Shown here piece by piece: positions 18,921-41,699 of a stretch of DNA of 64,000 nucleotides (positions are counted from its first letter, which is position 1; the number at the start of each line of letters is the position of its first letter). The notes beneath the pieces were generated by a model, which was not told the origin of the DNA, searched no databases, and saw only the letters and a list, made by a program, of their open reading frames with translations. This stretch comes from Apostichopus japonicus. Lineage: Eukaryota; Echinodermata; Holothuroidea; Aspidochirotida; Stichopodidae. A program made the position numbers and the translations under genes. The DNA lies in the NCBI RefSeq assembly GCF_037975245.1, contig NC_092572.1, forward strand, positions 8,075,501-8,139,500. The letters run 5' to 3'.

Positions 18921-19647
18921 TACACTATCAATAGCAATCACAAACAGGTCTTTCAGTACAACAACCACTACATAGATATCTATCTTGATAATACTGTCCA
19001 CACTTTCAAACATAACATCTGTTTTGATGTATCTTGGTTATGCTTTCCTTATCATGGCTGTATAATGTATGGTCTCTAGGTGTAAGATACGTGTTACGCT
19101 GTTGCCACTGTGGTGTGAAATTTGTGATTGCTAATGGTATGACTATAACGAAATTGGTACACGCTAACAAGCGTGTAGTGTTTAACAGGTTTTCCAGCTT
19201 GCAGTATAGCTGTACAGGAGTATGTATTTACCATCACATGTGTTAGAATATTCACATTTGCTGGTAGGATTGATAACAATTGGATGAAAGTGAACTACAA
19301 GAAATTTACTTACACAAAATACTTAGTTCACAAGTGCTTGCCATAGAACGAAAAATGATACTCAGATGTCATCTTATATTCTATTACTAAGAACACATTT
19401 TTTAATTACATAAACCATTCACAAATATCTATATTTACTCTATTCATAATTTCACCAAATCTGTTGTGTACTAAATAGAACAAATATGCAAATGATGAAC
19501 TGCTGAATGAAACTTGTACTGAAATATATTGATACTTTATCATATTATACTATAGTCCACAAACAAAAATCAATCACATTTTTTTCTAAATACTCGACAT
19601 AAATATTGCCAAACATAATTCTTTAACACTAGAGATAGAAAAAAAAA
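18921..19647. other. Unannotated; 3' flank of the V-ATPase copy
   Basis: Lies downstream of the last exon of the minus-strand ATP6V1A copy and would hold its 3' UTR. AATAAA-like words are common in such AT-rich sequence, so no single poly(A) site can be named. Confidence 0.4.
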
Positions 19648-19740
19648 TCAGTCTTCAAGATTGCGGAAGCTTTGCTGCATATTTTCGTAAAGTTCACTAA
19701 AGTCAGCTTTGATTTTGGCTTCACCATCTTTCACAGGGTC
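19648..19740 (-). pseudogene. ATP6V1A: ATP6V1A terminal exon
   Basis: Acceptor CATTTTCAG, phase 0, 30 codons and TGA. It starts [19 protein letters not shown] and ends SFRNLED, the characteristic C-terminus of the animal subunit. No lesion. Confidence 0.9.
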
Positions 19741-20955
19741 CTGAAAATGAAAGAGAGGAAGGAACTCATATATTACACAGTGTCAACCAACCTTTGATGA
19801 TATAATAAATATTTAAGCAATGAAGTTTATGACTAAGGAGGTCACTGAAAGAGAAAGCAATCTTGATCTTAACAGTTGCTTTGTTGGCAATCACATAGTA
19901 CTAAAATCTCAAATTGAGATTGTAGTTGCTCAAAGTATATGACTTTCCAAGTCTTTTCAACAACGTGATTGATGAAACTTGAACAAATGTGATCCTAAAT
20001 ATGATTGTCGCTCATAATATTCTTCCCCATTAGTATGAATTTAACACCCAAAGAGAAAAATTAAAAACTATTTCCCTTGATTTTTACTTCAATGTTGCAT
20101 TAACAATTGATATGTTACAAAACATGCTTCATAATACATACCTTATAAAATATAGTATACATTATATATGTTATATATAATACAGAGTATGCATAATATA
20201 TGCTATACAAAATACATTACATATGCTAAATAATATACTATGTAGCGTACACTTTATAATATATACATTACTATATACAGTATGTACTCAACAATATATA
20301 ATATATAATGTAATGTATTAGCATCTATACTATATAATGTGTTGTAAACATTGTATAATATATACCATACACACTACATAATAAACTATCTATAAACTAT
20401 ACCATACAATAAACTATACACTGTAAGCTTTACTATGTAGTATTGAATGTATAATAAATACAATACTATATAGTAAACATACATTATATACTTACTGTGA
20501 ACAATATACCATACTATTTACTTTTACTATTATATAATACTGTCACAAACTATAATAGCCAAATTCTTTAAGCAGTAACTGTTTTCTTAATTCAAAGGGC
20601 TGATGGATTACATTTTTACAGAGCTCTTTAACAAGTTATGTCACATGATACAAACTGAAACTGAAATTATGAAAACTACAAGGCAACAAACACAAAACAA
20701 AAGGTTCAATAATGGGAAGGCTTATTGCACTTTTATGGTGGTAATACCTTATGCTCAGAGACTCACAAGTCACACATGTAAAGTGCTCTTAAATTGTACT
20801 TAAAGATCCAAGAGAGGACTAATTCAAATGAAAATTAGGTTAAGTTCTTCAATGTTGGAAAGGTTATTCAATTTGAAGCAAAGATATTACACCAAAAAAG
20901 TACTGTACAAAACAAGCTCTCTAGGTGCAGTTTCTACATTAAGCTTTAAACTACT
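19741..20955. repeat. Intron sequence with TA-rich simple repeat
   Basis: From about 20130 to 20560 the sequence is a degenerate TATA/ATAC-rich array (TATATAATATA, CTATACAATA and similar). The same type of array followed by the same unique sequence (AGATCCAAG.GAGG, GTTAAGTTCTT..) is found at 38990-39440, marking one edge of the local duplication. Confidence 0.65.
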
Positions 20956-20959
20956 AATG

Positions 20960-21217
20960 TGTTGACACATATCTCACCATACACTTCATACTACTGAGTT
21001 GATACATATATCCTACCTTAAACTTCATACTCTTGAGTTCATACATATCTTACCTTAAACTTCACACAACTGAGTTGATACATATCTTACCTTCAAAATT
21101 TTATACTACTGAGTTGATACATATCTTACCTTCATTTTACACTACTAAGTTGCTACATATCTTACCTAAAACTTCATATTACTGAGTTGAAACATATCTT
21201 ACCTAAACTTCATACTA
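20960..21217 (-). repeat. Exon/splice-donor minisatellite, distal part
   Basis: About seven units of 36-40 bp, on the plus strand ACTTCATACTACTGAGTTGA followed by TACATATCTTACCTT. Read on the minus strand each unit is TATCAACTCAGTAGTATGAA.TTTAAG/GTAAGATATG, i.e. codons for YQLSSMKFK and the GTAAGA donor of the exon at 25134-25305. The array is interrupted at 21217 by a DNA element and resumes at 24729. Confidence 0.85.
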
Positions 21218-21922
21218 GGACAGGTCCAAGCTTTTGTATCCCTAGAAGCCAAATTTCAAACTTTACTGAAGCACCCAAAATGTGGTGTCATGTTAAAGCT
21301 GAATTATTGAAGTTTCAGATTTTCATAATTTTTGGGAATTTTTTTGCCTATTCCAACAATTGCAGCCAGCTAATTTGCATAAATTCAAATTGCAGTGTGA
21401 CGTACGGGACATTTGGAATCCTATTTCCCTGCCAGTAATATGAACTTATTGAATATAAGTTATGTGGGACATGATACACCCTTCCTTCCAATAATTTTGA
21501 CATATTATGTTTGGGGGTTCATCAATTAAATATGCTAATTAGCTAGTGTCCAAATACTGATGTCCCATACGTCACAATTTTTAGCTCTTTTTTTCAAGGT
21601 TTGATATGAAGGAACAATTTTTTTTTTTTGTGATATTCTATTCTAATTAAGAACATTGCTCAAAAATATCCATCCCAAAAAACTTGAAAAAATATTTACT
21701 GCAAATCTAATTATCAAATTTTAAAATGTGACGTACAGGACAAAATGTGACGTACGGGACATAGTGTGGTGGAAACCCTGTATTTATACACAATAAATAT
21801 GCATGGGCATTGGGCTCCAATGGGGACCTCTACTGGAAACCTTCCAATGCTTACAAGTTTATTTTGTTGAACGCTGGTAGTTGCAACTTGTAATCCCTGC
21901 ATGCCTGAAGAGCACATCATGG

Positions 21923-23019
21923 TGTTACGTTGGAATGCGAGAGGTCTCGATAATTAATTTTTAACGAGACACAAGCCTGGGTTTGTTTCCGTAAGGAACA
22001 CAGACAAATTGACGAGTCTAGAGATTTTAAACGAGAACGTAAACTATATTGAACAATGGATTTCGAACCAACAACAACAAGTGGTGATTACAAATATATA
22101 GAAAATTACTCACAAACTTAACAAGATAGGATACACTTTAAAACACGCTGGTCTCTTCCAACGGCGATATCCCTCAGCGGCCACGACCTTGATGACGACG
22201 ATTCTCGGTCCGTTGTACCGCGAAATTCACTGGTCCTCGACGAAGTTTCTCGCGATCCCAGAAACAGCAGTCACCTTCTTTCCGGCGATGCTCCAAAATA
22301 GAAGACGGACATCCAGCCACAATCGAGTGAAGCACAAGTCGAACTTCTCGCCGACTAAATATTACCAGAGTCAGTCCAAAATCAGCTTTATAGCCACCAA
22401 CTCCTGGCGTAACGAACTTCCTCAACGGAGACAGAAATTCTTCACCTTCTCCGAAATAAAGACTGGAAAACTGTACTTTCACAGCAAAGTCCTCTTCAAA
22501 CTTCTGAATGGAAGTGTAGAATCAATCTTGGTATCGATATCTCAATCCTTCAGAAACTACTGGCAGTTGAGCACTGACGATATATAGTAGAATGGTATAA
22601 TATGCGTCGTCGCTTGTATTCGTTCAGAAACTGAGAAACTCTCCGATCTGGGCGGGTTTTTATACGATTCGCCATGTCAAGAATCATCTAGATCTTTTTC
22701 GATACACTTGACCCAGTTTCTCTATTCTTGGAAGTCCTTTGCATATCTCGCGAACATTCCAGAGACTCCACGAAGATGTGTGCACAGCGCAACGGGACTT
22801 CACGTAAACCGACGTTAACCCGAGACCAGCGCGTCATCATAAGGAATATACCAGAACAATCATGTATTGCTCATTACATAAATAACATCCTGACGTTAAC
22901 CCGACCTTATTTCTCAAATATTGATTGTCACGTAGGCCATTTCAAATACTTTCTATATAATAACATTAGGTTCCTCACTAGCAGTAGCTAGCGTTAGGCT
23001 ACAATGGGCCCTCGTAACA
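21923..23019. mobile_element. Solo LTR
   Basis: 1,097 bp starting TGTTACG and ending CGTAACA, with ATGG on both sides (21919-21922 and 23020-23023). Without it the flanks join as CACATC-ATGG-CACCAAAT. The internal part is GC-richer than the surroundings and contains open frames of up to 132 codons that match nothing I recognise. The size, TG...CA ends and 4-bp duplication fit a Ty3/Gypsy-type LTR left after recombination. Confidence 0.8.
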
Positions 23020-23346
23020 ATGGCACCAAATAAACTATTGACTGATGACCACCAACAGCCCGGGTGTTGTTTGACTATCGGGAATTCAATTGTGTGTGTG
23101 TGTGGGGGATACAGAATCATCTACAATGCTATTCAACATTGACATTGAATGAGGACGACTTCAAGAATGTTGAGTTTTCATTTCAAAAATTAGTAGGCAT
23201 ATTGTGACGTGTGACTATGATAATGTGCAACAATGTTCTTGTGTCCTGATCTTAGATAGTAGACATTGAGATTTTTAGTTACGATTGTAGAGTTTCGCTC
23301 GCCCAATTTTTGCAGAGGACAATCACTCATGAGTTTGTACAATATC

Positions 23347-24090
23347 CAGTATTAGGTCTATAGTGTTTTCTTGGTTGTACTAGTTTCATAGATGGACATT
23401 ACGTGGCATTACTGTGGACATTTGGTATATTTTGAATGGGATGGATCATATTTCAACTTCAGGGTCATTATTAGTGCGGAGTATGATAAAGTGTTGTACA
23501 GTATACACCAAAACAGTTTTGCACCAAAACTTTGCATCTTGAATCATTTGTGGTCTAAAGTAGCTAGAATTGATGTTATGACTATTTGGTCTGGTAACCA
23601 GTATTAGGTCTATAGAGTTTTCTTTGTTGTACTAGTTTAATAGATGGACATTACGTGGACGTTACTGTGGACGTTTTGGTATGTTTTGAATGGGATGGAT
23701 CATATTTCAACTTCAGGGTCAATAGTGGGGAGTATGATACAGTGTCGTACAGTGTATACCAAAACAGTTTTGCACCAAAACTTTGCATCTTGAATCATTT
23801 TTGGTCTAAAGTAGCTAGAGTTGATGTTATGACTATCTGGTCTGGTAACCAGTATTAGGTCTATAGAGTTTTCTTTGTTGTACTAGTTTAATAGATGGAC
23901 ATTACATGGACGTTACTGTGGACGTTTTGGTATGTTTTGAATGGGATGGATCATATTTCAACTTCAGGGTCAATAGTGGGGAGTATGATACAGTGTCGTA
24001 CAGTGTATACCAAAACAGTTTTGCACCAAAACTTTGCATCTTGAATCATTTGTGGTCTAACAAAGCTAGAATTGATGTTATGAGTATTTG
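23347..24090 (+). repeat. Three tandem copies of a 251-bp unit
   Basis: Units start with CAGTATTAGGTCTATAG at 23347, 23599 and 23850; copies 2 and 3 are nearly identical, and copy 1 is slightly more diverged. Each unit has an open frame of about 61-71 codons (FEWDGSYFNFRV, QNSFAPKLCILNH). Because 251 is not a multiple of three the frames do not join, and each ends in a stop. It lies inside the 3.5-kb element. Confidence 0.85.
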
Positions 24091-24728
24091 ATGTATGTGT
24101 ACATTAGATTAATACTTTACGCATTCCATGTTTTACGTGGAATGATCTCACAAGTACAGTCACTGCTCTTTTCAGTATCCCAGAAAGAAGGAAATATGGC
24201 ATGAAATTACCAATGACATTGTTCTGGCTTATCCAAATTAATTTTTTTTATGTAGAAATCAGCTTGTTATGACCTATTCAGGAATAAAAATATGAGTTTT
24301 CATAGTAAATTTGTATATGGACAAATTGTCCCGTACGTCACATGTCCCATACGTCACAGGACAATTTTCATTTGTGTAATCACTGTACTGGAATGGCTTC
24401 ATATATTTTTTTCTAATATGTTACAGCTTAGCCCTTGGAAGGTTAGGCTATTCAAAAGTGATAACAGCTTGATCACTGCCCTCCTAATTTCAGAGGGGTT
24501 TCAGCTTTGCTCGTTAGTAAAAAAAACACAAAATTCTCTGGTCCCGTACGTCACAATGTACATTAATTAAGATGGGACCTAATTAAAGCAAGTGAAGGAA
24601 ATCTTCATGAGTTTGTAATAAAGTAGCAGCAATAACAAATATGAAAACTTGAAAACGTTTCTGGAAAATAGATTTTTTATAACTTTGAGACACTTAGACA
24701 CTTTTAGGCAAATAGCTTGGACCTGCCC

Positions 24729-25133
24729 ACTACTGAGTTGATATATATCTTACCTTTAACTTCATACTTCTGACATATTTTACGTTCAATTTCATACTAC
24801 AGACTTGATACATATCTTACCTAAAACTTCATATTACTGAGTTGATACATATCTTACCTTTAACTTCATACTTCTGACATATTTTACCTTCAATTTCATA
24901 CTACTGAGTTGATACATATCTTACCTAAAACTTCATATTACTGAGTTGATACGTATCTTACCTAAAACTTCATATAACTGAGTTGATACATATCTTACCT
25001 TTAACTTCATACTACTGACATATTTTACCTTCAATTTTATACTACTGAGTTGATACATATCTTACGTTCACCGCCATACAGTTGATATATATTTTACCTC
25101 TGACTTACCCAACTGAGTTGATACATATCTTAC
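24729..25133 (-). repeat. Exon/splice-donor minisatellite, proximal part
   Basis: About eleven further units directly adjoining the donor of the ATP6V1A exon, so that the real exon end is the first unit of the array. Some units keep the GTAAG donor, some have it changed (CTAAA or CGTAA variants). Together with 20960-21217 the intron holds on the order of eighteen donor-like copies. Confidence 0.88.
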
Positions 25134-25305
25134 CTTAAATTTCATACTACTGAGTTGATACATGATGTCATTCATATTCTCCCTGATAATAGCCCAGGTA
25201 ATCTTATTTTCACTTTGAGCTGTTGTCTCGACTGCATGCCTAACCATATCGTAGAAAGCAATCATGTTCTGAAGCATGCCGACTGTCTTGTAGAATGGAC
25301 AATAC
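25134..25305 (-). pseudogene. ATP6V1A: ATP6V1A penultimate exon, frame intact
   Basis: 172 nt, acceptor GCTTCAG, donor TTTAAG/GTAAGA, 57 codons with no lesion. It contains [38 protein letters not shown] and, at the 3' end, YQLSSMKFK. The last 25 or so bases of this exon plus the first bases of the intron are the unit of the minisatellite that fills the following intron. Confidence 0.9.
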
Positions 25306-26584: not shown

Positions 26585-26740
26585 CTATCGTATTGTGTGT
26601 AGCCATTTTGTTGCAAGAAGTCATCCTTGATGAGCTTGGCTACCTCTAGAGTAAAACTTATCTGGCTCAGCTAGAGAACCCTTTCCAACAAGCTGGACGA
26701 TTTCTGCCAAGTCTTCTTCCTCTTGGAGAATTTCTTTGAC
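26585..26740 (-). pseudogene. ATP6V1A: ATP6V1A exon with +1 frameshift
   Basis: Encodes [20 protein letters not shown], then GSLAEPDK, a T-run with one base too many, and, in the shifted frame, [20 protein letters not shown] ending YDR at GATAG/GTGAGT. 156 nt against 155 expected. Sequence apart from the indel is close to the animal consensus. Confidence 0.85.
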
Positions 26741-28478: not shown

Positions 28479-28741
<263 letters not shown>

Positions 28742-29335: not shown

Positions 29336-29647
<312 letters not shown>

Positions 29648-34646: not shown

Positions 34647-36829
34647 GTTTGTTGTTTTCTACAAAGATTGCACACAGAACTCATGGCTCATTGGACAATT
34701 CATATCACTTGGTACAGATATCTCACTGGCGCACAACTTTTGAACGTAAAACGGCAGGTTTCTTAACATACGCAATAAAAAATATAGTTCGATCTTTCGA
34801 GCGGAATTGCAAAAAAACTGCAGGAAAGTACATGGAGAACTTTTGGATCATTAATCTTAGTTAATTTATGTATTCGATGCTGTAGAGAAATTTTAGACCC
34901 GCAGTTGCTGGAACGAAACAAGCGAATTTCGACCTTCAGCTGATGGCCTATAAGTTGTGCATGCAGCGTAGGCAAAAATTATATACAAGTTTCATGAACT
35001 GAAAAAGTACTTGTGTTGAAGGTTATTACAATGTAAAACTTATATTGAAGAGAGAAATATTACACACTGCTAGTTGAAAATACCATCTTAATATCAAGCC
35101 CCTAACTAGAGATATGGTTCATTGAATGTAACCTATTTTTTCTTGCTAACTCTTCAACTACTCCAGGAAAACAAACCTTTATGATGGCATTATAATTTTC
35201 TTGTTGGTTTAAATTCTTTAAACCTGATTCATTTGGAATGTCGCTTAGCTGTTAAAGTTATGTGTGCTAAAGAATGTCATCAAATGTATCTTTTTTTGTA
35301 GAAATATACTTTACCTTTTGTGAATAAATTATTGACAAGTTACAAAGAAAAACAAGGAAATGTTCAGCTAAATTGTCCTAATGACATCGGCCATTCTGCT
35401 GTTGCCAGATGTAATTTACAACAACAAAATATCACAAAATTCATATCTTACAAAATGCCATGAGTATGTGGTTTCGGCCCAAAGATTCAGAAAACTTCCA
35501 GTCATTTTGCAAAGCAAATCATTTTCAGAGACCAGAAATTCTTTAATGGTCTGTTTGACTATTCACTGACAAACCTATGTGAGGTTCATACAAGTGGTAC
35601 TTGCACTGACTTTGGTCATTTTGTTCATTTTGTTTTGTTTTATTGTTTTGCTGTTTGATACTAAAACCTCATTTACATGGTGCAGATCTTTAGCATGACT
35701 ATACAGTCAGTTTTCAATGCAAAAATTGAAGAACCAGAAAAGCGAACTGCTTTAGTGATTCCTTGCCACATTTCATCGTAACTTAGAATATTTAATGTAA
35801 AACTGCAGTAAATGTTTTTGAGTACTAAACACTGCTTCCTTCAAGTGATTTAACGCAAAGTTCTTAAACTCATGTAGTGCTTAAATCCTTCAGGAATATT
35901 GTATTACATTAGCAAAAAGGGAAGAAATAGCCCCCATAGTAATCAAACTTCAGAACCCCTCTGCACAGAATAACGAATGCCTTTTTCTTGCCAACACACA
36001 TACAACTATTCAACCAGTGTAATTTTCTTTTGTGTGCAACATGTTAGAATATAAATTTGAATATCAAGTTAACTCTAAAGAACCTGTTATAAAGGAGCCT
36101 TACTTCACACATAATTTCATGTATAAGTCAATTACTTTCAATGCCCTATATCCATTATTATTATAATTATTACTTTCACAATCATTCTTAAGAAGGACTT
36201 CCACGAAGGCTCAATTGTATTGCCACTCAGAACATAATGATACTGAATTGTGACTACACAATACAATCCCATAGTACTCTAACTGAGGTTACAAGAAAAT
36301 ATTTTACAAAGACTTGTTAATAACTGACAACACTTTGAGGGTAATAACTTGAGGTAGCAAATTACATCAAATAGCAAGATTTGAAATGTCCTCTTGATTT
36401 GTACACACATTAAATAAAACATGGCTCCTTTCTTTACATTTTCAAAGTTGCTGACAAATATTAACCTTTCTTAACTGCAAATGCTAACAACCTTGGAATG
36501 AAACAAGCATATATATTCTATTCATTGACACAAGTTGAAGATAAAAAAGTAGTTACTGATCAATTTATTTTTATCCTTGTCTCCTTTAAAGGTAACTTTT
36601 TGCATAAAGTTAATTTCGATGCACTGTAGAATGTTTACACATGTATCTCTGTTGTCGGACCATCCCAGGGAAGTAGATAGCATATTATATTTAAAGTTGA
36701 ATATACTAAAAACCGAAATAGCTAAAGAAAGATTACTAGCACTAAATATTTTGTTTTTCTCCTGGGCTATTCAGACAAAAATAAGACTAAATTTCATTCT
36801 GTAAGTGACCTCGTGGCAGAAAAACATAC

Positions 36830-38985
<2,156 letters not shown>

Positions 38986-39439: not shown

Positions 39440-39930
39440 TTAAGCAATTTACTACTGAGATGCTATATATTTTATATATTATATGCTACTGATTTGAAAG
39501 GTATCTTACTTAAAGTTCATCCACTGAATTCATACATATCTTTCATTTAACCATTATACTTCTGGGCTGACACATATCTTACCATCAACATCATACTACT
39601 GAGTTGATACACACACTACTTTTAACTTTATACTTCTGAGTTGATACATATCTTTTACCTTTTACTACATACTACTGAGCTGACACATATGTTACCATTA
39701 ACTTCATATAACTGAGTTTATACATATCTTACGTTAACCTTCATACTACTGAGTTGATACATACATAACCTTTATTTTCATAGTTCTAACTTGATACATA
39801 TCTTACCTTTAATCACCTGCTACTGAGTTCATACATGTTTTACCTTCAACTTCATACTACTGAGATGATACATATCTTAACATACACTATATACTACTGA
39901 GTTGATACATACTGCTACTGAGTTATACAT
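39440..39930 (-). repeat. Exon/splice-donor minisatellite in the second copy
   Basis: About nine degenerate units of the same 36-40 bp repeat (CATACTACTGAGTTGATACA, TATCTTACC) precede the decayed exon copy at 39930. Units are more diverged than in the first locus. Confidence 0.75.
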
Positions 39931-40066
39931 TATGTCATTCATATTCTCCATAATAGCTCAGGTAATCTTATTTTTACTTTGAGCTGTTGTTTTGGCGGCA
40001 TGCCTAGCCATATCGTAGGAAGCAATCATTTTCTAGAGGATGCGGACTGTCTTGTATGGACAATAC
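39930..40066 (-). pseudogene. ATP6V1A: Decayed copy of the ATP6V1A penultimate exon
   Basis: Homologous to 25134-25305: acceptor TTCAG/GTATTGTCC, then YKTVR, MIASYDMARHAAKTTAQSKN and ENMNDIMY. It contains a small deletion after CCA, a TAG inside the LQNM block, TGA in place of the Trp codon of ITWAII, and another short deletion near the 3' end. Clearly non-functional. Confidence 0.85.
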
Positions 40067-41699
40067 CTGAACCATCGAGTACAAAGTAAGGAGAAAGTAC
40101 TGCATAAACTGTGTAAGTGAAAATCGGTTGAAATTGCAGTACAGTACTCTCTCACCTTCTTTGGTACTTCGAAACATCATTTTTTTTGTCAATTATTGGC
40201 CGAGAACGTAACTGTGATATACTGGAAAAGTGTAGCAATTATTATCAAATTCATGTTAAATTGTGCATTGCACATCATCACTTGGTCCGGGATAGTCTAG
40301 CCAAGCTAAGAAAGGATTCTAACTACATACTGAGTCCAGGTAATGACAGTGGGAGACAACATTTATATCCAAAGTCAAAAGTGAAAAGTGATACTAAATC
40401 TGAGGTACATGGTATTCTACAGATGATAAAGATGTTGACAAGCTCAATGTTGGTTTATGAGAGGCTTGCTCAGATGGTTACTGCGTTTAAGAGCGGATAA
40501 TAATTAAAGTTTTTGCTATGTACATGAAATCAACTATGAAACACTTAAACATACTATTAACCTTTGTTATCTTTAATTCAATAAACAAATTAAACCGATC
40601 GCAAGTACTTAATTACTTGTTTGTTTTCTTTTTAATAAACAAATGAAATATATCACAACTATTTCATTTAATATAAACAATGTTTAATTCACTAACTTCC
40701 CTAAATAGTAAATATGTGACCTATCAAATGAACTGTTTGAAAAAATATATTTCGATAATGTCACACACGTGTTTTTCTAATCTAACAAAGTTTTTTATGC
40801 ATATGCTTCTTTGTGCTTGTGTTATCCATCCACATAATTATACTGAGTATGATGTAAATACTCACTGCAATGACTTCGTCTCAGCAAAATATCAATATCT
40901 CTTCTTTTTATTCGCTCAGATAGTATTCCCTCTGGAATTGCTAAAATAACTATCATATGTTGTTTATAAGTTAAAGACGCTGAGTCTTCTTCAGTGGTAA
41001 TTTTCTTTGTTTTTCTACATTCTATTTATTTCAATTGTTTTTCTTCCTTTTCTGTCATATGTACTTATTCATTTTAATCCTGTACACTAGACACATGTGT
41101 AATTTGCTTTTGTGTATATGTTAGAACATACATTTGAATATTAAGTGTCACTCTACGGCAAAGAACATTAAATGGAACCTTACTTTGTGGATAAATCAAA
41201 TTTCATCAATAATTAATAATTAATTAGCGTAGCTTCCACTGCCCTGTATCCACGAGTATTATTACTTTCACGATCATTTGACTTCAGTACTGGCTTAATT
41301 ATATTGTAACCCAGAACATGGTTTAACCGAATTGTTTCTGCACAACCCACAACACTCTAATTTAGGAGGTTACTAGAAAATATTTACAGACACTTGTGAA
41401 TAAATTAACAAGTTCCATCGAATATATCACATTTTTCCTCTAGAGTTTGTGCACAAGTTAAATAAAACTTGGCTCCTTTTCTTTTCATTACCAAAGGTGC
41501 TGACAAAAACTAACCCTTTTTAACTGCAACGTTAACAACCTTGTTATGAAACAAGAACACATATTCTATTTATTGACAATTTGAAGATACACTTAGTAAC
41601 TGATCAATTTATTTACACCCTTGTCTCATTTAAAGTCGACTTTGATATGTTGTAGAATGTTAACCCATCTCTGCTATCAGTCCAGGATGTACTTGTTAA

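What the first reader, a model, noticed from the sequence alone, without database searches (positions are those of the whole stretch)
20960..25133. Minisatellite made of a gene's own exon end and 5' splice site
The intron after the ATP6V1A exon 25134-25305 begins with about 18 copies of a 36-40 bp unit that is the last ~25 nt of that exon (YQLSSMKFK) plus GTAAGATATG. Many units keep the GTAAG donor. The exon end is therefore the first unit of an array of donor decoys, a situation I do not know to be described. It could promote exon lengthening or mis-splicing, and may be linked to decay of this copy.
Basis: seen in the sequence. Interest (0 to 1): 0.8.

Follow-up and report, generated by a model that had tools for sequence, protein, structure and literature searches.

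The report
Exon-end splice-donor minisatellite in V-ATPase gene
The end of one coding exon and its splice signal in an essential proton-pump gene has been copied in tandem about fifteen times into the next intron, in the apparently working gene as well as in its broken copies; it is most likely a neutral repeat, but it leaves a natural test of how cells pick the right splice site among identical decoys.

Summary
The unit is 37 bp: the last 27 nt of the ATP6V1A penultimate exon plus the first 10 nt of the intron. In this copy 19 units follow the exon, split by a 3.5 kb dispersed transposon-like insertion (21218-24728). The unit is not a dispersed satellite: 74 of 74 genome matches (up to 3 mismatches) lie in one 0.5 Mb cluster of ATP6V1A copies. 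The only complete ATP6V1A gene found, about 28 kb outside the window, carries the array too. There, 14 of 15 decoy junctions keep GT and 6 of 15 have the same 9-mer as the real donor (AAG|GTAAGA). So the array predates the partial duplications and is not linked to decay of this copy. Use of any of those six decoys would meet a stop at the seventh added codon and lose the last 30 residues. Decoy donors are kept no better in the intact gene than in its broken copies: no sign of selection either way, on small counts. Best reading: a neutral boundary minisatellite, founded by one short duplication, with the exon-adjacent donor still used. Closest known case: the human ABCA7 intron 18 VNTR. No RNA evidence was available.

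The parts
25134..25305 (-). Penultimate coding exon (exon 12 by my count) of the ATP6V1A partial copy A; open; 97.7% identical to the exon of the intact gene
25134..25160 (-). Last 27 nt of the exon (YQLSSMKFK), the founder part of the repeat unit
   Evidence: 26 of 27 nt match the unit consensus
24729..25133 (-). Exon-adjacent part of the array: donor AAG|GTAAGA, then 12 units (the last cut by the insertion)
21218..24728 (.). Dispersed repeat inserted into the array; ends GG(A/G)CAGGTCCAAGC in inverted orientation, 4-bp target duplication ACTA at 21214-21217 and 24729-24732; contains a 251-bp x3 tandem repeat
   Evidence: (left 387 bp: 40 matches, own place included, from 40 scored of 124 candidates, on many contigs)
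20952..21217 (-). Distal part of the same array, 7 units (its first 16 nt complete the split unit)
19648..19740 (-). Last coding exon of copy A, 93 of 93 nt identical to the intact gene
26585..26740 (-). Exon 11 of copy A, with a 1-nt length difference (frameshift)
28480..28689 (-). Exon 10 of copy A, with a 2-nt length difference (frameshift)
29338..29452 (-). Exon 9 of copy A
36829..36968 (-). Exon 8 of copy A, with an in-frame stop
39914..40068 (-). Decayed copy of the same penultimate exon (copy B), in-frame stops
39450..39911 (-). Array of the same 37-bp unit behind copy B

Best explanation
This is a minisatellite founded at an exon boundary of the V-ATPase catalytic subunit A gene. A tandem duplication took the last 27 nt of the penultimate exon and the first 10 nt of the last intron as its unit, probably by slippage between a TATG in the exon and a TATG at intron positions +7 to +10 (inferred). 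The array then grew by ordinary minisatellite turnover. It was already present before the 3' half of the gene was duplicated repeatedly downstream, and it has kept turning over in the copies since. The units look like donors because they are copies of one, not because donors are kept by selection. In the intact gene the exon-adjacent donor is presumably still chosen (exon definition, first donor transcribed, exonic enhancers), because use of the decoys would truncate an essential protein. Shown: unit make-up, genomic confinement to ATP6V1A copies as far as the searches see, presence in the complete gene, ordered kinship of units between copies, no excess of intact decoys in the intact gene. 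Inferred: founding slippage, donor choice, neutrality.
For: Unit confined to ATP6V1A: 74 of 74 matches to GTAAGATATGTATCAACTCAGTAG (up to 3 mismatches) on C12:7.65-8.17 Mb, all on one strand; the reversed control pattern gives 1. An array query gives 12 rows at 10 loci, all in that cluster. The exon is conserved protein, so the coding sequence came first. The complete gene at C12:8167781-8186538 has exons covering TIGR01042 positions 9-571 plus the last exon, and has 15 units. Units keep order between copies: intact units 1, 2 and 4 have units 1, 2 and 4 as best match in copy A, L003 and L004 (unit 1 tied with unit 9 in L003); unit 3 does so in copy A, is tied in L003 and fails in L004; of 13 rows of copy B, 12 run in order in L009 and 11 in L013. 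Local turnover: a 74-bp double unit repeated several times in the intact gene has a single close counterpart, in L004. Donor junctions with GT: 14 of 15 in the intact gene, 40 of 47 in the four array pieces of copy A, L003 and L004, 55 of 63 in the six other arrays; Fisher p 0.67 against the first group, 0.69 against all 110. GTAAG: 7 of 15 against 25 of 47 (p 0.77) and 50 of 110 (p 1.0). AAGGTAAGA: 6 of 15 against 17 of 47 (p 1.0) and 29 of 110 (p 0.36). The GTAAG columns rank 16th of 37 runs of five in conservation.
Against: The GT column pair ranks 2nd of 37 adjacent pairs in conservation (0.931); by column it is 0.967 in the intact gene and 0.926 and 0.928 in the two groups of broken copies, a small difference in the direction of selection. 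With 15 junctions in the intact gene the tests have little power. No RNA evidence shows which donor is used. No related species was examined, so the age of the array is known only relative to the duplications. The division into younger and older copies is not clean: in the exon tree L009 groups with L003 (85/86), although its array runs with copy B. The TATG microhomology is 4 nt and could be chance.
Confidence: 0.77

Rival explanations
1. The ladder of donors is a regulatory device: choice of decoys lengthens the exon, brings in a stop and sends the mRNA to decay, tuning ATP6V1A output.
For: In the intact gene all six decoys identical to the real donor 9-mer, if used, give the same early stop ([14 protein letters not shown]), 114 to 455 nt before the junction, which by the recalled 50-55 nt rule would trigger nonsense-mediated decay. 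Donor 9-mers at or above the authentic score: 7 (authentic included) in the 559-bp array against 0.41 per kb in the rest of the gene; shuffles mean 0.16, largest 3 (weights recalled).
Against: Decoy donors are not significantly better kept in the intact gene than in broken copies; the array turns over locally, and in the double unit of the intact gene every second junction is weaker (AAT|GTAAAA).
Confidence: 0.09
2. The decoys are a harmful load: leaky use lowers functional mRNA in the working gene, and the array persists by drift or recurrent expansion.
For: Same decoy inventory and frame outcomes. In the human ABCA7 VNTR use of the next donor, lengthening the exon by one unit, was observed (PMC5954066, passages).
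Against: No depletion of decoy GTs in the intact gene relative to broken copies, as selection against them would give (14 of 15 against 40 of 47).
Confidence: 0.1
3. The unit is a dispersed satellite that landed beside the exon, and the exon similarity is secondary.
For: None found.
Against: 0 of 74 pattern matches and 0 of 12 array matches outside the ATP6V1A cluster; 26 of 27 nt agree with a conserved coding end.
Confidence: 0.01
4. The array drove the repeated partial duplication of the gene by unequal crossing-over between arrays.
For: All ten loci carry the array, but they were found through it or the exon beside it, so this is partly circular.
Against: The one junction examined, behind copy B, joins sequence about 70 nt past the array (gene position 19058) to the exon 7 region (9215), not array to array. 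Only this junction was looked at.
Confidence: 0.03

Closest known systems
Human ABCA7 intron 18 VNTR (25-bp unit, Alzheimer risk; PMC5954066, passages read)
   Same: Tandem array at the 5' end of an intron, beginning with the exon's own splice donor, so that units can carry a donor; the paper reports a cryptic donor one unit downstream that puts the transcript out of frame
   Different: There, as described in the passages, the unit begins at the GT; here 27 of 37 nt are coding exon end. Here the array also sits in a cluster of partial gene copies. Length polymorphism and splicing were shown there, not here
[quoted passage not shown] 2010, PMC2891723, passages; Zhuo et al. 2007 PNAS, seen only as a reference, content recalled)
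   Same: A short tandem duplication across a splice-site-bearing coding stretch
   Different: There a new intron with both ends in duplicated sequence arises; here only the donor is multiplied, and the acceptor of the intron lies outside the array
TERT intron 6 VNTR6-1 (38-bp unit; PMC11830802, search listing and start of abstract only)
   Same: Intronic minisatellite of similar unit length, in a paper on splicing of its gene
   Different: No claim seen that its unit is derived from an exon end or donor

Membership tests
Minisatellite / VNTR | Head-to-tail array of units of about 10-100 bp | tested here: met
   TRF, period 37; unit parse
Minisatellite / VNTR | Copy number varies between individuals | not testable with these tools
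   One assembly only; unit number and order differ between paralogous copies
Donor-bearing exon-flanking VNTR (ABCA7 type) | Array abuts the exon and includes its donor | tested here: met
   First junction AAG|GTAAGA continuous with the array in the intact gene and in this copy
Donor-bearing exon-flanking VNTR (ABCA7 type) | Donor repeated in the units | tested here: met
   14 of 15 decoy junctions GT, 6 of 15 identical 9-mer in the intact gene
Donor-bearing exon-flanking VNTR (ABCA7 type) | Alters splicing of the host gene | not testable with these tools
   No RNA data
Introns born from tandem arrays | Both donor and acceptor of the intron lie in the repeated sequence | tested here: not met
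   Acceptor TTTTCAG|GACCCT lies outside the array in the 1295-bp intron
Dispersed satellite | Unit present at unrelated loci | tested here: not met
   (the searches score best candidates only and do not see N stretches)

The most novel reading that the evidence does not exclude
An essential gene carries a working ladder of donor decoys made from its own coding exon end, used to switch off part of its output by exon lengthening and premature stop.
Probability: 0.07. Interest if true: 0.8.

Novelty: new variant of a known kind. Interest (0 to 1): 0.45.

Why it matters
In the only complete copy found of an essential gene, six decoys downstream of the real donor have its 9-mer, and three of them also 25 of 27 nt of its exonic flank (rows). 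If the exon-adjacent site is the one used, donor strength and immediate exonic context can hardly explain the choice; position or sequence further upstream in the exon must. From the paper passages seen (PMC5585400), SRSF1 favours the intron-proximal donor (here the decoys) and hnRNP A1 the intron-distal one (here the real site). RNA from this species, or a minigene with units removed one by one, would test these rules on a natural array. It also shows that an exon end can be the first unit of a minisatellite, so that repeat mutation can reach into coding sequence.

Tried and rejected
Dispersed satellite origin: rejected. Link to decay of this copy: rejected, since the complete gene has the array. 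Selection on donors: no significant signal either way. Second donor array in the same gene: a 41-bp array in intron 3 (L015:5357-5668) has GGTGAGT in its consensus, but there are only 3 GTRAGT in the 700 nt around it (one of them the exon 3 donor), so it is not a comparable donor ladder. No other array in L014 or L015 was examined closely. PMC3045353 (Sparus myostatin-2 intron 1, passages): a 150-bp repeat at the 5' end of intron 1, no donor array described in the passages seen. PMC8724738 and PMC3488318 (passages) gave references only. Other species: not searched; the collections on offer are viral or prokaryotic, and metagenome scans were capped at 0.

Rows dropped and limits: junctions with gaps in the last three or first two positions, and units with more than 8 gaps, were left out; the junction across the insertion was not counted; the first row of each array was left out of its column counts except for the distal piece of this copy (in one search the column counts included first rows). 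Donor weights are recalled human-like values, and exon ends of the other exons there were placed by eye; 4 of the 12 donors so placed score above the array donor and one scores -4.2. The shuffles there are first-order Markov samples.

Full report
What was claimed and what is there. The window is G000 C12:8075501-8139500 of an unnamed 671.6 Mb genome, probably of an animal (inference). The exon at 25134-25305 (-) encodes [20 protein letters not shown]...[12 protein letters not shown] and matches V-ATPase catalytic subunit A, residues 530-587 of chain 6wlz_A. Immediately after it comes an array with consensus GTAAGATATG + TATCAACTCAGTAGTATGAAGTTTAAG, that is, the donor and first 10 intronic nt followed by the last 27 exonic nt. 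The exon end agrees with the unit consensus at 26 of 27 positions; the one difference is synonymous (AAA/AAG). The chance test in the window gives 20 matches of a 20-mer (up to 3 mismatches) against 0.02 expected.

The array in this copy is split. Units lie at 24729-25133 (12) and 20952-21217 (7). Between them, 21218-24728 is a dispersed repeat with short inverted ends and a 4-bp target duplication. A search with its left 387 bp gave 40 matches, own place included, from 40 scored of 124 candidates, on many contigs, the others at about 95-96% identity.

The array is specific to ATP6V1A as far as the searches see. A DNA search with the exon and array edge gave 88 matches; a pattern search with up to 3 mismatches gave 74; the array of the intact gene gave 12. 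All lie on C12 between 7.65 and 8.17 Mb on one strand. They fall into ten loci: the intact gene, copy A and copy B of the window, and seven others (L003-L007, L009, L013). Nine of the ten keep the exon as well; L013 has the array without an exon match. The reversed-pattern control gave one match. These searches score best candidates only and do not see N stretches.

The complete gene carries it too. Matches to TIGR01042 run in order from C12:8186538 down to 8169167, covering model positions 9-571 of 591. The last exon is at 8167781-8167875 with [30 protein letters not shown] and a stop. No other set among the 36 matches covers the whole model; 1 of 36 lies off C12, at 34.7 bits. Its 1295-bp last intron starts with 15 units. 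The last exon is found at 4 loci: the intact gene, copy A, and near L003 and L004. The array is therefore older than the duplications. The lesions seen in copy A are elsewhere: a stop in exon 8, length differences of 2 and 1 nt in exons 10 and 11; exons 12 and 13 are open.

Order of events. Identity of exon 12 with some upstream intron is 97% between the intact gene and copy A, 90-92% with L003 and L004, and 80-86% with the five other copies. In the tree the intact gene and copy A pair (100/99); support elsewhere is mixed, and L009 falls with L003 (85/86) although its array runs with that of copy B, so copies may be mosaic. Behind the exon, intact units 1, 2 and 4 have units 1, 2 and 4 as best match in copy A, L003 and L004 (unit 1 tied in L003); unit 3 fits in copy A, is tied in L003 and fails in L004. 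Of 13 rows of copy B, 12 run in order in L009 and 11 in L013. Middle units have turned over: a 74-bp double unit repeated several times in the intact gene has one close counterpart, in L004. The sequence before the exonic 27 nt ends in TATG (ATTATG in the intact gene, ATCATG in copy A, which shares only ATG) and the intronic 10 nt end in GATATG. The shared TATG of the intact gene would explain the 37-bp period by one slippage event. This is inference.

Consequences for splicing. In the intact gene 14 of 15 decoy junctions keep GT, 7 keep GTAAG, and 6 are AAGGTAAGA, identical to the real donor over nine positions. With recalled donor weights, the array holds 7 sites at or above the authentic score (the authentic one included) in 559 bp, against 0.41 per kb in the rest of the gene; Markov shuffles give 0.16 on average and 3 at most. 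Splicing from any of the six identical decoys (extensions of 135 to 476 nt) to the last exon meets the same stop, the seventh codon past the exon, 114 to 455 nt before the junction. By the recalled 50-55 nt rule these mRNAs would be decay targets. They would also lack the last 30 residues.

Is there selection on the decoys? GT is kept at 14 of 15 junctions in the intact gene, 40 of 47 in copy A, L003 and L004 together, and 55 of 63 in the six other arrays (Fisher p 0.67 against the first group, 0.69 against all 110). GTAAG is kept at 7 of 15, 25 of 47 and 25 of 63 (p 0.77 and 1.0), the full 9-mer at 6 of 15, 17 of 47 and 12 of 63 (p 1.0 and 0.36). Column conservation over 132 units puts the GTAAG run at rank 16 of 37, but the GT pair at rank 2 of 37. 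That second figure speaks against a wholly unremarkable donor, but it is nearly as high in the broken copies (0.926 and 0.928) as in the intact gene (0.967). With such counts a modest effect either way would be missed.

Comparison with what is known. The human ABCA7 intron 18 VNTR is the closest case: its 25-bp array begins with the GT of exon 18, and donor use one unit downstream was seen, out of frame (PMC5954066, passages). The present array differs in that most of the unit is coding exon end. Tandem duplication of proto-splice sites as a source of introns (PMC2891723, passages) works with both splice sites in duplicated sequence; here the acceptor is outside. Six text searches (two of them returned no paper) showed no report of an array whose unit is an exon end plus donor; most papers of subscription journals are not held.

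Verdict. The structure is real, unusual and exon-derived, and it sits in an apparently intact essential gene. The simplest account is a neutral boundary minisatellite with continued use of the exon-adjacent donor. Its value is as a natural experiment on donor choice, for which RNA data are needed.

Noticed in passing
window 19504-41635 and G000 C12:7.65-8.19 Mb: The 3' half of ATP6V1A (about exon 7 or 8 to the end) has been duplicated repeatedly in one orientation downstream of the only complete copy found; in four places a decayed exon-12 copy or its array is followed, about 2.8-3.9 kb further on, by an exon-8 match.
   Followed up: partly
window 19648-19740, 25134-25305, 28480-28689, 29338-29452: Exons 9, 10, 12 and 13 of copy A are 97-100% identical to the intact gene (exon 11 96%, exon 8 91%; gaps left out) while most matched intron stretches are about 82-89% (gaps counted), so this copy may have been under coding constraint, or converted, until recently despite its stop and frameshifts.
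   Followed up: partly
L009 (C12:7935938): Mosaic look: the intron end before the exon is like L003 and L004, while the exon and array are like copy B.
   Followed up: no
window 38776-38964: Two tandem pieces of the exon 7 region sit at the junction behind copy B, past its array.
   Followed up: no
window 21218-24728: Dispersed repeat with short inverted ends, internal 251-bp triple repeat and several copies of a TGTCCCGTACGTCACA-like motif, inserted into the array.
   Followed up: partly
L015:2729-3891 (intron 4 of the intact gene): Further 51-bp and 145-bp minisatellites sharing TGTTGTCATAATGGCCAGCACAT.
   Followed up: no
L004 exon end (C12:7696448 onward): This exon copy has a short deletion inside the repeated 27 nt of the exon.
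   Followed up: no
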